From: Albimonas marina
Lineage (GTDB): Bacteria > Pseudomonadota > Alphaproteobacteria > Rhodobacterales > Rhodobacteraceae
Assembly (NCBI RefSeq): GCF_029223255.1
Contig: NZ_JARHUC010000003.1
Location: 434,001 to 498,000 of the forward strand
Direction: 5' to 3'
Length of the DNA: 64,000 nucleotides
Position numbers and translations under genes: made by a program. A model generated the notes under the pieces. It was given only the letters and a program-made list of their open reading frames with translations. It made no database searches and was not told the origin of the DNA. Of the stretch, positions 9,687 to 53,236 are shown in pieces (the first letter of the stretch is position 1; each line of letters opens with the position of its first letter).

Positions 9687-9781
9687 CGGCGAAGTCTCCT
9701 GCCTGTCGTCGGGGGCCTCGCGAGGCGGGGCTCGCTCGGGCCATGCCCGGCTACGCCGGGGCGCGCGATGCGCGCAAGAGG

Positions 9782-9980
9782 GGCGCTTCGGGAGCCCACC
9801 AGAAAACAGGCCCGCGCCTGTCCTCCGGAGCCGTCCGTCGCTGGAGATGCCTGAGCGACTCGGGGGGCGGGGTCAAGGACAAGCCGGCTTCGCCGGTCGC
9901 TTCGCGATCCCTGACCTCGCCCCCCGAGCCGCTCTTCACGGCATCAGCGACGGACGGCTCCGGAGAACAGGCGCTCGCGG
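9782..9980. repeat. Dispersed covarying hairpin element, copy A
   Basis: Imperfect palindrome. The outer arms 9816-9843 and 9945-9972 are complementary at 27 of 28 positions. The middle arms 9859-9875 and 9912-9928 pair with one mismatch (CTCGGGGGGCGGGGTCA). The apical stem is CCGGC/GCCGG. It lies between the recQ stop and the xthA start. It shares outer arm, flanks and architecture with copies B and C, but its middle stem sequence is different, with both arms changed together. Confidence 0.9.
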
Positions 9981-10139
9981 GGGGCGCTTGCGGCGCAGGG
10001 GCGCCGGCGGCGGGCGTCGGAGACGGCGGGCGGCGACGGGAGACGGGGGCCCCGCGCGCCGAGGCCGGGGCGCGCCGCGGGCGGGAGGGGGCCGCAAGGC
10101 GCCCCGGTCGACGCGGCGCCTCGCGGCCGGGCGCGCGGC

Positions 10140-12242
10140 TCACGCCTCGGCGGCGGCGGCGAGGATCGACAGGAACGCGGGGCCGAAGCGCTCGGCCTTC
10201 TGGGGACCCATGCCGGGGATCTGGCCCAGCGCCTCGAGGCTGTCGGGACGCCGTTCGACGATCTTGGCGAGCGTCGCGTTGGTGCAGTTGAGCGGCTTGT
10301 CCGCGCCCTCGACGCCGCGCGACAGGCGCAGCTGCGCGGCATGGAGGGCGTCGAACAGCTCCCCGTCGCCGGAGGCGGCCGCGCGGATCCGGCCGGGGTG
10401 GGCGTCGCCGGCGGGGGCGCCGGTCAGCACCTCGAGGAACTCGGCCCCGTAGCGGGCGAGCTTGGCCGCGCCGACGCCGTGGCACTGGGCGAGCTCGTCC
10501 ATCGTGCGCGGCTTCTTCGTGGCCATGTCGATCAGGCTGCGGTCGTTGAAGACGATGTAGGCCGGCGCGTTCTGCGCCTCGGCCAGGCGCCGGCGCAGCA
10601 CCTTGAGGGCCGAGAGCAGCGGCTCGTCCGCCTCGTCCACCAGCGCGGCGGGGGCGGGGCGGCGTTCGTCCTTCTTCGAGCCGCGGGACGTCAGCGCGTC
10701 CTTGCGCAGCTGCAGGCCCTGTTCGCCGCGCAGCACCGGGCGGGCGTCCTCGCTCAGGCGCCAGCCGCCGGTCTGGCCGTCGACCTGGGTCAGGCCGAGC
10801 GCCAGCAGCTGGCGTAGGATGCCGCGCCAGGCGTTGCGATCGAACTCCTTGCCGATGCCCCACACCGTGAGGCGGTCGTGGCCCAGGCGCTCGGCCCGCT
10901 CGTTGGTCTTGCCCAGCAGCACGTCGACCACGTGCTCGACCCCGAAGCGTTCCCCGGTGCGGTAGATGGCCGAGAGGGCCTTCTGCGCCGCGACCGCGCC
11001 GTCGAAGAGCTCGGGCGGCTTCCGGCAGAGGTCGCAGTTGCCGCAGGGCTGGGGGCGGGCCTCGCCGAAATAGGCGAGCAGGGTCTGGCGGCGGCAGCCG
11101 GGCGCCTCGGCCAGCGCCAGCAGGGCGTTCAGGCGCTGGTGGTCGGCGCGCTTGCGCTCGTCCGGCGCGAGGCTCTCGTCGATCTGGAGGCGGCGGAGCT
11201 TGATGTCCTCGACCCCGTAGAGGGTGAAGGTGTCGGCCGGCGCTCCGTCGCGCCCGGCGCGCCCGATCTCCTGGTAGTACGCCTCGACCGACTTGGGCAG
11301 GTCGGCGTGGGCCACGAAGCGGATGTCGGGCTTGTCCACGCCCATGCCGAAGGCGACGGTGGCGCAGATCACCATCCCGTCCTCGCGGCTGAAGCGGTCC
11401 TGGGTGTGGGCGCGGGTCTCTGCGTCGAGGCCGGCGTGGTAGGGCAGGGCGTCGAAGCCCTCGGCCCGGAGCGCGGTCGCCAGCACCTCGCACTTGTTGC
11501 GCGAGCCCGCGTAGACGATGCCGGAGCGGCCGCGGCGGGGGATCACGAAATCCATCAGCTGCTTGCGCGGCGAGGCCTTGGCCTCGAAGGCGAGATGCAG
11601 GTTGGGCCGGTCGAAGCCGCGCAGGAACACGGCCGGGGCGCCCGGGTCCTCGCCCTCGTCCGTCAGGGCCGCGTCGTCGTGGTCGAAGAGACGGCGCAGG
11701 ATCTCGGCGCGGGTCTCCTCGTCGGCGGTGGCGGTGAAGGCGGCGGTCTGGATGTTGCCCAGCGCCGCGCGCAGCTCGCCGATGCGCAGGTAGTCGGGGC
11801 GGAAGTCGTGGCCCCACTGGCTGACGCAATGCGCCTCGTCGATCGCCAGCAGCGAGATCGGCAGGCGGGCGAGCAGCTGGCGGGAGGAGGAGAGCCGCTC
11901 GGGCGCGAGATAAAGAAGCTTCAGAGCGCCGCGGTCGATCGCGTCGAAGATCCGCTCGTTGTCCTCGGGCGTGTTGGCCGAGGTCAGCGCGCCCGCCTCC
12001 ACCCCCGCCTCGCGCAGCCCCGCCACCTGGTCGCGCATCAGGGCGATGAGGGGGGAGACGACCAGCGTGACGCCGTCACGGGCCAGCGCGGGAAGCTGGT
12101 AGCACAGGCTCTTGCCGCCGCCGGTCGGCATGATCGCCAGCACGTCGCGGCCGTTCTGGATGGCGGAGACGATCTCCTCCTGGCCGGGGCGGAAGGCGTC
12201 GAAGCCGAAGACGGATTTCAGGAGCGTCTCGGGTGTGGGCAT
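10140..12242 (-). CDS. recQ: ATP-dependent DNA helicase RecQ, with two HRDC-like modules
   Basis: 3'-5' superfamily 2 helicase acting in recombination and fork repair. At 700 aa it is longer than the ~610 aa of E. coli RecQ. In order: Walker A MPTGGGKSLCYQLPA near residue 40, DEAH box AIDEAHCVSQWGHDFRPDY, arginine-finger motif QEIGRAGRDG, and the RecQ zinc-binding CRRQTLL...CGNCDLC. An RQC region follows, then an HRDC domain (residues about 535-600). A second HRDC-like block (about 625-700) contains LGQIPGMGPQKAERFGPAF. Duplicated HRDC regions are known in Neisseria and Deinococcus RecQ. Dispersed hairpin copies A and B lie just after and just before the gene. Confidence 0.95.
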   Translation of the reverse strand: MPTPETLLKSVFGFDAFRPGQEEIVSAIQNGRDVLAIMPTGGGKSLCYQLPALARDGVTLVVSPLIALMRDQVAGLREAGVEAGALTSANTPEDNERIFDAIDRGALKLLYLAPERLSSSRQLLARLPISLLAIDEAHCVSQWGHDFRPDYLRIGELRAALGNIQTAAFTATADEETRAEILRRLFDHDDAALTDEGEDPGAPAVFLRGFDRPNLHLAFEAKASPRKQLMDFVIPRRGRSGIVYAGSRNKCEVLATALRAEGFDALPYHAGLDAETRAHTQDRFSREDGMVICATVAFGMGVDKPDIRFVAHADLPKSVEAYYQEIGRAGRDGAPADTFTLYGVEDIKLRRLQIDESLAPDERKRADHQRLNALLALAEAPGCRRQTLLAYFGEARPQPCGNCDLCRKPPELFDGAVAAQKALSAIYRTGERFGVEHVVDVLLGKTNERAERLGHDRLTVWGIGKEFDRNAWRGILRQLLALGLTQVDGQTGGWRLSEDARPVLRGEQGLQLRKDALTSRGSKKDERRPAPAALVDEADEPLLSALKVLRRRLAEAQNAPAYIVFNDRSLIDMATKKPRTMDELAQCHGVGAAKLARYGAEFLEVLTGAPAGDAHPGRIRAAASGDGELFDALHAAQLRLSRGVEGADKPLNCTNATLAKIVERRPDSLEALGQIPGMGPQKAERFGPAFLSILAAAAEA

Positions 12243-12428
12243 GGGGATGCTGCGCGGACCTTGGGAATCTGTCTCTCGGGTGCGGGTGGCGCAGGGTATC
12301 GGCAGGGGGCGGGGAAGGCGAGAGGGAGGGGCGCGATCCGGGCCTTCGAGCGGCGCGGGAGCGGGGGGCCTCCGAGGCGGGGCTCGTCGGCTGGCCGCTG
12401 CGCGGGGGCGCTTGCGCGCCCGGAAGGC

Positions 12429-12625
12429 CGCTTCGGGAGCTCACCAAAGAACAGGGCCGCGCCTCTTCTTCGCAGCCGTCCGTCGCTGAAGATGCCTGAG
12501 CGAGTCGCCGGGAGGGGTCAAGGACAAGCCCGCGCAAGCGCGGGTCGCTTCGCGATCCTGGACCCCTCCCGACGACTCGCTCTTTACGGCATCAGCGATG
12601 GACGGCTCCGAAGAACAGGCGCTTC
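12429..12625. repeat. Dispersed covarying hairpin element, copy B
   Basis: Same architecture and orientation as copies A and C. The outer arms 12461-12488 and 12593-12620 match at 25 of 28 positions. The middle arms 12501-12524 and 12556-12579 match at 22 of 24, with a CCGGGAGGGGTC core instead of the GGGGGGCGGGGTC of copy A. The apical stem is CCCGCGC-AA-GCGCGGG. It sits 58 bases past the erpA stop and upstream of recQ. Similarity to copy C continues about 40 bases beyond the right arm. Confidence 0.9.
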
Positions 12626-12682
12626 GCGCGGGCCTGCGGGCGTCGCGCCGGGCGCGTGGGGCGGGCCGCGCGAGGGCGCGGC

Positions 12683-14396: not shown

Positions 14397-14595
14397 AGGA
14401 TCGACGCGGGGGCGCTGGTCCCAAGGGCCGCCCCCGGGCACAGGGTCGGAGAAGGGCCCGAGGCTTGCCGGCGGACGACCGGGCCGCAGGCGCCTCGGCC
14501 GGGCCGCGCCGCGGGCGAAGGGTCGGCGGCCGGCGCGCGCGTCGACGCGGCGCCTTGCGACCGACGGGGGCCGGGGCGGTGCGGGAAGCGACGGG

Positions 14596-14649
14596 GTCGG
14601 GGCGGGGGGAAAGAAGTCCGGCGTCGGGGCGGGGGGAAAGAAGTCCGGC
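14596..14649. repeat. Perfect 27-bp tandem duplication
   Basis: The 27-bp unit beginning GTCGGGGCGGGGGGAAAGAA occurs twice head to tail (14596-14622 and 14623-14649) in the 302-base gap after dgt. It looks like slippage. No other feature was seen in that gap. Confidence 0.85.
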
Positions 14650-14981: not shown

Positions 14982-15030
14982 TACCCTTCGGATAGCAGCT
15001 ATCCGTAAGGTAGCGACTATCCGAAGGGTA
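14982..15030. repeat. Nested inverted repeat built from GGATAG/CTATCC units
   Basis: TACCCTTCGGATAG (14982-14995) is perfectly complementary to CTATCCGAAGGGTA (15017-15030). The left arm also forms a second, smaller palindrome, CGGATAG-CAG-CTATCCG, with sequence inside the loop, so two mutually exclusive hairpins are possible. There is no T-run on either side. Confidence 0.8.
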
Positions 15031-52792: not shown

Positions 52793-52952
52793 GCGTCAAG
52801 ATCCTTGTCGGGCGCGGGGCGGCGCTCTGCGGCCGTCAGGATTACGGTGGGCGTTGGGAGCGAAGGAGGACGGAGGCGCCCTGCGGGCGGGCTTGGGCCT
52901 CTTGCAGGCGGCGCGCCCGGGTTAGGCCGGGCGGGAGCCTCCGGCGGGCTCC

Positions 52953-53150
52953 TGACTCACCAAAGAACAAGCCCGCGCCTGTCCTCCGGAGCCGTCTCTC
53001 GCTGATGGATGCCTGAGCGACTCGCCCCCGCCGGTCAAGGACAAGCCCCGCGCAAGCGCGGGGTCGCTCCGCGATCCCTGACCGGCGGGGACGAGTCGCT
53101 CTTTACGGCATCCGCGAGAGACGGCTCCGGAGAACAGGCGCTTCGCGAGG
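52953..53150. repeat. Dispersed covarying hairpin element, copy C
   Basis: Same layout as copies A and B. The outer arms 52977-53004 and 53112-53139 pair almost throughout. The middle arms (53016-53042 with 53074-53100) pair with two mismatches and have a CCCCCGCCGGTCA core. The apical stem is CCCCGCGC-AA-GCGCGGGG. In the outer stem, CTCTCG/CGAGAG replaces the CCGTCG/CGACGG of copy A, a paired change. It lies 87 bases past the stop of the orphan ABC protein and upstream of arsR. Confidence 0.9.
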
Positions 53151-53236
53151 GGCGCCGGCGTCGCGCCGGGGCGCCTGGGGCGGGGCGGACGGCGCGGGGG
53201 CGGGCAGGGGGCGAGGCGGGAGCGCGGCGGCGCGGG

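What the first reader, a model, noticed from the sequence alone, without database searches (positions are those of the whole stretch)
9782..12625. recQ is bracketed by two copies of a ~200-bp hairpin element whose stems covary
Copies A (9782-9980) and B (12429-12625) share outer arms, flanks and layout, but their middle stems differ: CTCGGGGGGCGGGGTCA in A against CCGGGAGGGGTC in B. In each copy the opposite arm is changed to match. Outer-stem positions also change in pairs (CTCC/GGAG in A, CTTC/GAAG in B), and so does the apical stem. Paired change means selection or gene conversion keeps the fold, not the sequence. Candidate roles are a mobile REP/MITE-like element moved by a REP-associated transposase, an RNA 3'-end stabiliser, or a protein-binding DNA cruciform.
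Basis: seen in the sequence. Interest (0 to 1): 0.8.

Follow-up and report, generated by a model that had tools for sequence, protein, structure and literature searches.

The report
Hairpin cassettes in fixed genomic slots
The two repeats beside recQ belong to a family of well over a hundred long DNA hairpins that sit at many of the same places in two related bacteria, whose stems change letters in matched pairs and whose sequences seem to be copied from slot to slot within each genome, which makes an old question about how such repeats persist directly testable.

Summary
Copies A and B, and a third, C (unit 52872-53184), belong to a dispersed family: 133 pattern matches in this genome and about 145 copies in a congener. 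The core is a 160-170 nt branched hairpin. On 60 copies, 98.5% of 3711 stem cells pair; 272 cells changed on both sides, against 90 in shuffles. Further findings: (1) 41 copies lie at orthologous sites in both species, yet orthologues are at most 90% identical and share no middle stem (0 of 38), while hairpins at unrelated sites of one genome reach 99%. So sequence is overwritten within each genome at fixed slots. (2) The hairpin is bounded by a short direct repeat (AAGAACAGG). Eleven hairpin-less slots hold one repeat; seven are filled in the sister species. (3) Copies sit at gene 3' ends and avoid divergent gaps. No Y1/RAYT transposase was found in either species. Best reading: a REPIN/BIME-like non-autonomous hairpin element, fold kept by selection, copied between fixed slots by an unidentified process. 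New variant of a known kind.

The parts
9711..10015 (+). Copy A, whole unit: left module (GGGGGCCTCGCGAGGCGGGGCTCGCTCGG, 9711-9739), pre-hairpin segment to CACC (9783-9800), hairpin, right module to about 10015
   Evidence: Similar modules flank other copies; coordinates
9801..9810 (+). Copy A upstream direct repeat 'a' (AGAAAACAGG)
   Evidence: one such repeat remains in hairpin-less slots
9814..9974 (+). Copy A hairpin; outer arms 9814-9843 and 9945-9974; right foot repeats 'a' at 9962-9971
9863..9924 (+). Copy A hypervariable middle stem: arms 9863-9871 and 9916-9924 around the apical domain
   Evidence: Positions counted; variability
12363..12666 (+). Copy B, whole unit: left module 12363-12423, pre-hairpin segment 12424-12445, hairpin, right module 12620-12666
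12446..12455 (+). Copy B upstream direct repeat 'a' (AAAGAACAGG)
12459..12622 (+). Copy B hairpin; right foot repeats 'a' at 12610-12619
12508..12572 (+). Copy B hypervariable middle stem: arms 12508-12516 and 12564-12572
   Evidence: Positions counted; variability
52872..53184 (+). Copy C, whole unit: left module 52872-52899, pre-hairpin segment GGAGCCTCCGGCGGGCTCCTGACTCACC 52934-52961, hairpin, right module 53139-53184
52962..52971 (+). Copy C upstream direct repeat 'a' (AAAGAACAAG)
52975..53141 (+). Copy C hairpin; 98.8% identical to the copy in L102 (G000:C12) at an unrelated site, although both sites have their own orthologous copy in G001

Best explanation
A family of large dispersed palindromic elements of the REPIN/BIME general kind. 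Each unit is a slot (left module, CTCACC, a 9-10 bp repeat, right module) holding a 160-170 nt hairpin cassette with a three-way apical domain. SHOWN: dispersal; pairing despite sequence turnover; many positions shared by two species, at gene 3' ends; precise presence or absence of the hairpin with one direct repeat left; near-identity of hairpins between unrelated slots of one genome but not between orthologous slots. INFERRED: hairpins are copied from slot to slot (gene conversion, or excision and re-entry as single-stranded hairpins), are sometimes lost by recombination or slippage between the flanking repeats, and selection for the fold (as DNA hairpin or as transcript 3' end) removes unpaired stem changes, so stems drift mainly through matched changes.
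For: 133 matches in G000 (each of the 98 full-length copies held matches once) and 290 in G001, about 145 copies because all 87 full-length copies held match the short pattern on both strands. Covariation: 98.5% of 3711 cells paired, 272 doubly changed cells vs 90 shuffled (0 of 500 as high), slid controls 38-44% paired. Middle-stem mismatches of 9 positions: own partner 0.48 (G000, n=95) and 0.27 (G001, n=86), another copy's partner 3.34 and 3.64. 41 orthologous pairs with both flanks. Orthologue vs random cross-genome identity: far flank 0.80/0.505, middle stem 0.648/0.672, 0 of 38 identical. 26 within-genome hairpin pairs at 97% identity or more, their 200-bp flanks matching at 0.42-0.56 (random copies: mean 0.47, 5-95% 0.43-0.51); best orthologue 0.896; an own-genome paralogue nearer than the orthologue in 40 of 40. 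In 3 of the 26 both sites have an orthologous copy in the sister species. Eleven hairpin-less slots, 7 filled in the sister. Context: 74 convergent, 86 tandem, 6 divergent of 166 against 13/38/22 of 73 background gaps of 100 bp or more.
Against: No enzyme for copying was identified. Saturation under strong sequence constraint could mimic part of the loss of orthologue signal, though hardly the 97-99% paralogue pairs. 'Nearest of about 90 paralogues' favours paralogues by number alone; the permutation test is the fair one, and there orthologues are slightly but significantly closer than random pairs in the arms (p=0.0025 and 0.004). Pre-hairpin type is linked to outer-arm type (z about 30 in G000, 15 in G001), so cassettes do not move freely between all slot types. 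Hairpin-less slots could include assembly or PCR artefacts. One covariation measure (further pair types) did not exceed shuffles (465 of 500 as high). Copies fetched were mostly exact pattern matches, which favours standard copies.
Confidence: 0.6

Rival explanations
1. The element is chiefly a selected RNA device: a transcript 3'-end hairpin (terminator or stabiliser), perhaps working best on the minus strand, kept at gene ends because it works there. Sequence turnover is compensatory evolution with some recombination among copies.
For: 3'-end placement and near absence between divergent genes; positions shared by two species; asymmetric internal loops and a three-way apical domain; T-rich tail on the minus strand just beyond the hairpin (T fraction up to 0.92; not on the plus strand); a terminator-like match inside the apical part on the minus strand in each of A, B and C, the strand of their neighbouring genes (3 found vs 0.8 in shuffles and 1 vs 0.2); in the closest copy pairs 8 of 40 differences fall in stems although 124 of 175 columns are paired (pairs not independent).
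Against: Tandem orientation 52 versus 34, p=0.066, so both orientations are common. Excess of wobble on the minus strand not significant: 21 vs 12 distinct states, p=0.16. No Rfam family. Does not by itself explain 97-99% identity between unrelated slots.
Confidence: 0.24
2. Mutational bookkeeping without function: replication template switching inside the hairpin copies one arm onto the other, so any long palindrome covaries.
For: The mechanism is proposed for RNA stems (PMC8794818, outline and abstract seen).
Against: At 3 or fewer differences (18 pairs) there were 0 doubly changed pairs and 8 single ones; the doubly changed share rises with divergence 0, 0.22, 0.41, 0.56, 0.75, 0.79, which fits stepwise change better than one-event copying. 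The 181 copies that my orientation-specific parse could read all have the apical domain the same way round, though switching would sometimes invert it; 4 full-length copies were not read, and fetching by pattern favours the standard orientation. Outer arms are sequence-conserved while the middle stem is free. Does not explain identity between slots.
Confidence: 0.1
3. A true REPIN system moved by a RAYT (Y1 HUH) transposase in the host.
For: REPINs are hairpins with conserved ends, a variable paired spacer and common compensatory changes, and their presumed intermediate has a 5' tail complementary to the 3' end (PMC3116915, passages). Here the upstream repeat 'a' goes together with the right foot and can pair with the left foot.
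Against: No PF01797 match in G000, G001, G002, G020 or G022 (the same search rang in 5 of 14 control genomes). No GTAG or CGTC tag at the hairpin foot. Cores are 160-170 nt.
Confidence: 0.04

Closest known systems
REPIN (REP doublets forming hairpins), Pseudomonas and E. coli
   Same: High-copy extragenic hairpins; conserved ends with a variable but complementary interior; compensatory changes; excision seen in reads (PMC3116915, passages)
   Different: Here 160-170 nt, a branched apical domain, flanking modules of their own, direct repeats that bound hairpin-less slots, no RAYT found, and contents overwritten at fixed sites
CGTC-tagged REPs of alpha-proteobacteria
   Same: Dispersed palindromes in the same class, reported without a linked transposase (PMC3733652, passages)
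   Different: CGTC REPs have 8-9 bp stems starting with A and T residues, a CGTC-like tag and a CCA-like tail; none of these is at the foot here
BIME / ERIC / RU-type composite intergenic repeats of enterobacteria
   Same: Composite palindromic intergenic units (BIME and ERIC features recalled; RU seen only in the search listing)
   Different: No sequence comparison was made
MITEs
   Same: Non-autonomous, short, dispersed, bounded by direct repeats (general features recalled)
   Different: The direct repeat is the same motif family at the sites read, so it is not a random target duplication; no autonomous partner known (not searched beyond PF01797)

Membership tests
REPIN/RAYT | RAYT (Y1 HUH, PF01797) in the host | tested here: not met
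   0 matches in G000, G001, G002; a match in 2 of 11 genomes tested (G139, G148)
REPIN/RAYT | GTAG- or CGTC-type tag at the hairpin foot | tested here: not met
   Foot is GCGCCTG / CAGGCGC in alignments A1 and A2, read by eye; tags as in PMC3733652 (passages)
REPIN/RAYT | Conserved ends, complementary variable interior | tested here: met
REPIN/RAYT | High-copy, extragenic | tested here: met
   no strongly coding ORF was found to span a held copy by a GC3 criterion
CGTC REP | 8-9 bp stem starting with A/T, CCA-like tail | tested here: not met
MITE | Target-site duplication and empty sites | tested here: inconclusive
   Hairpin-less slots with one direct repeat exist, but the repeat is element-specific
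MITE | Related autonomous transposon | not tested
   Only PF01797 was searched
Known structured RNA | Match to an Rfam family at its gathering score | tested here: not met
   0 in the window and 0 in 13 related loci

The most novel reading that the evidence does not exclude
A within-genome homing system of hairpin cassettes. Fixed slots marked by CTCACC-AAGAACAGG act as landing pads; the upstream repeat can pair with the hairpin's left foot in place of the right foot (a:a':a), letting a single-stranded hairpin leave precisely and re-enter another slot of the same type in fixed orientation, so that a hundred or more positions stay put while their contents are rewritten as one evolving population, by an enzyme not yet known.
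Probability: 0.22. Interest if true: 0.82.

Novelty: new variant of a known kind. Interest (0 to 1): 0.62.

Why it matters
Whether bacterial palindromic repeats persist by selection at their sites, by transposition or by gene conversion is an old question (a review titled 'evolution by gene conversion?' is in the reference list of PMC3116915, seen). This family separates the three: positions are shared, contents are not, and hairpin-less slots give the exact unit. It offers 41 orthologous site pairs and 11 hairpin-less slots for direct tests, and warns that strong covariation need not mean one stable RNA gene per locus.

Tried and rejected
Rfam at gathering score and permissively on 3 kb (8 matches, all below their gathering scores, the best a microRNA model, read as chance). 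RAYT search: negative in G000 and G001. SbcD loss as a reason for palindrome tolerance: only G003 of 16 genomes passed the TIGR00619 cut-off (12 of 16 had weaker or stronger matches), so uninformative. RNA-strand wobble test: not significant. Insertion boundary at window 57.63 kb: G001 has a unit where G000 has none, but the surrounding intergenic DNA is too diverged to give breakpoints. Scan of named genomes: one hit only, Pseudoroseicyclus tamaricis, on a contig of the same length as G020:C1; that collection may leave out the window's own genome. Papers: 10 searches; nothing in those listings, nor in the passages of PMC3733652, PMC8632094, PMC8049555, PMC3116915 and PMC12306157 or the outline and abstract of PMC8794818, names this element; most subscription papers are not in that library.

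Results against a simple reading: pre-hairpin type and left-module type ARE kept between orthologues (31 of 41 and 29 of 41, p=0.0004 and 0.0006), outer-arm type and right foot weakly (18 of 41, p=0.009; 20 of 40, p=0.018), while loops (9 of 41 and 5 of 39) are not significant and the middle stem shows no signal. The short pattern counts each G001 copy twice, so 290 means about 145. My orthologue filter required the same orientation; the full listing holds only two inverted rows that match both flanks crosswise, both between L114 and L145, a locus with two neighbouring inverted copies whose same-orientation matches score higher.

Mended on checking: an earlier count of 66 stem types was 65 by genome, 61 overall; an earlier statement that no T-rich run follows the hairpin held for the plus strand only, and for that reason I moved the RNA rival from 0.22 to 0.24 and the best explanation from 0.62 to 0.60.

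Full report
Check of the observation. Copies A (hairpin 9814-9974) and B (12459-12622) are as described: 86% identical over the two listed stretches, each a long hairpin, with differing middle stems matched on the other arm. A third copy, C (hairpin 52975-53141), lies in the same window. The window is contig C16:434001-498000 of a 5.85 Mb genome, G000. Its family label is shared with G020, whose first contig has the length of a Pseudoroseicyclus tamaricis record (order Rhodobacterales); the genus of the window itself is unnamed.

The family. An own-genome search with copy A scored 40 of 216 first-look candidates, all of them matches. The pattern GATGCCTGAGCGASTCG-N9-GTCAAGGAC with up to 3 mismatches gave 77 + 56 = 133 places, reversed-pattern control 0. 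The same-genus genome G001 gave 290 matches to a shorter pattern (control 4); all 87 full-length G001 copies held match that pattern on both strands, so about 145 copies. I held 100 places in G000 and 90 in G001; 98 and 87 were full length; 181 of these 185 had both middle-stem arms readable.

Structure and covariation. The consensus is an outer stem, an asymmetric internal loop, a long middle stem and a three-way apical domain. On 60 copies (30 per genome, drawn at random from 183 cores), 98.5% of 3711 cells pair; 272 cells are changed on both sides against 90 in shuffles (0 of 500 as high); sliding the partner by 1-3 columns drops pairing to 38-44%. One measure, further pair types, does not exceed shuffles (465 of 500 as high). 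The 13-nt middle arm has 61 types among 181 copies, 29 in G000 and 36 in G001; 121 copies match the other arm perfectly and 52 with one mismatch. The nine variable positions differ from their own partner by 0.48 and 0.27 on average, from another copy's partner by 3.34 and 3.64. Among the closest copies (18 pairs, 3 or fewer differences) 32 differences are unpaired and 8 are single stem changes, none double; the double share rises with divergence. This looks like stepwise compensation under constraint, though the pairs are not independent.

Positions shared, contents not. Flank comparison found 41 site pairs in G000 and G001 with both flanks matching. Identity 200-700 bp away is 0.80 against 0.505 for random pairs; in the left arm 0.810/0.789, right arm 0.886/0.873, apical part 0.755/0.739, and in the middle stem 0.648/0.672 with 0 of 38 identical. 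Within-genome similarity exceeds random cross-genome similarity for the right arm (0.913 and 0.900 vs 0.873), apical part (0.778 and 0.775 vs 0.739) and middle stem (0.701 and 0.699 vs 0.672), and for the left arm clearly in G000 only (0.831 and 0.792 vs 0.789). Of 40 orthologous pairs with cores, the best is 0.896 identical; 26 within-genome pairs reach 0.97 or more with flanks at 0.42-0.56, near the background of 0.47. In three of the 26 (window C with L102; L003 with L005; L200 with L196) both sites have an orthologous copy in the sister species, so the sites were already occupied and their contents became alike afterwards. In C versus L102 the likeness stops at the hairpin foot on the right, and the spacer before the left foot differs. 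The slot type just before the hairpin is kept between orthologues (31 of 41 versus 21.5 expected), the outer-arm type less (18 of 41 versus 12.1), loops not significantly.

Hairpin-less slots. The upstream repeat 'a' (AAGAACAGG and variants) resembles the right foot and is complementary to the left foot; variants go together: all 11 G000 copies with right foot GGG have GGG or AGG upstream, though AAG upstream occurs with both AAG (45) and GAG (37). In related genera the repeat has other sequences, again similar on both sides in the loci that I read by eye. If the hairpin left between the repeats, one repeat should remain. The pattern CTCACC-NRR-GAACAGGCGCT (up to 1 mismatch) finds 6 such places in G000, 5 in G001, 0 in G002, controls 0. 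None has a hairpin at that place, and about 8 of 11 keep a recognisable left module, judged by eye. Seven of the eleven lie where the sister species has a filled slot: five lacking the hairpin in G000, two in G001 (L278 by its left flank only). Filled slots are the majority, so I read these as losses, but gain is not excluded.

Context. With a simple GC3-based gene caller, 166 of 185 copies had genes called on both sides: 74 convergent, 86 tandem, 6 divergent; background gaps of 100 bp or more in the window and 95 kb of G001 were 13, 38 and 22 (Fisher on convergent/divergent p about 1e-9). Orientation in tandem contexts was 52 versus 34 (p=0.066). On the minus strand, which carries the neighbouring genes of A, B and C, the hairpin is followed by a T-rich tail and the apical part gives a terminator-like match in all three copies. 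In the roughly 64 kb of synteny between window and G001, 3 copies are shared and 2 are in G001 only.

Relatives. Of 195 genomes searched with a covariance model (14 candidates scored in each genome listed), 11 had a match at E 0.01. Beyond G000 and G001, G022 (7 matches at 6 places), G020, G139 and G055 have elements of similar architecture with mostly a different apical sequence; G039, G148, G003, G002 and G125 have only an apical-like piece at weak E-values. An exact apical pattern was seen in 5 of 293 genomes, with more than one match only in G000 and G001.

Mechanism and verdict. Shown: a dispersed, structure-conserved hairpin family with shared slots, within-genome likeness and hairpin-less slots. 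Inferred: copying between slots (gene conversion or single-strand excision and re-entry), loss by recombination between the short repeats, and selection for the fold. Not shown: any enzyme, transcription, or a cellular role. By membership it is not a REPIN or a CGTC REP (no RAYT found, no tag, larger), although it works like a REPIN in its paired variable interior. I call it a new variant of a known kind.

Noticed in passing
L217 (G039), L222 (G125), L218 (G148), L219 (G003), L220 (G002), from position 1501 on the matched strand: Stand-alone hairpins resembling the apical domain (such as TCAAGGACAAGCC..ATCCTTGACC), four of five preceded by a GCTGAGA-like string by eye; in L217 and L222 between frames that look like betaine aldehyde dehydrogenase and choline dehydrogenase (judged by eye). 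Weak E-values, no Rfam match.
   Followed up: partly
L015 and L029 (G000), just before the hairpin: A strong GC hairpin followed by TTTTT, like an intrinsic terminator, directly abuts the element.
   Followed up: no
window 10061-10095 and 14497-14533: Another GC-rich module (around GGGCGCGCCGCGGGCG) recurs in the right flanks of a number of copies.
   Followed up: no
window 14986-15027: Inverted repeats (CTTCGGATAGCAGCTATCCGTAAGGTAGCGACTATCCGAAGG) between dgt and argS, possibly an operator.
   Followed up: no
window 14599-14648: A short tandem duplication (GGGGCGGGGGGAAAGAAGTCCGG twice) in the same gap.
   Followed up: no
G001:C36 near 97400-98300 (L173): In G001 the gap before argS holds a small reading frame that looks like a helix-turn-helix regulator and a copy of the element; the window has no copy there (gene type judged by eye).
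   Followed up: partly
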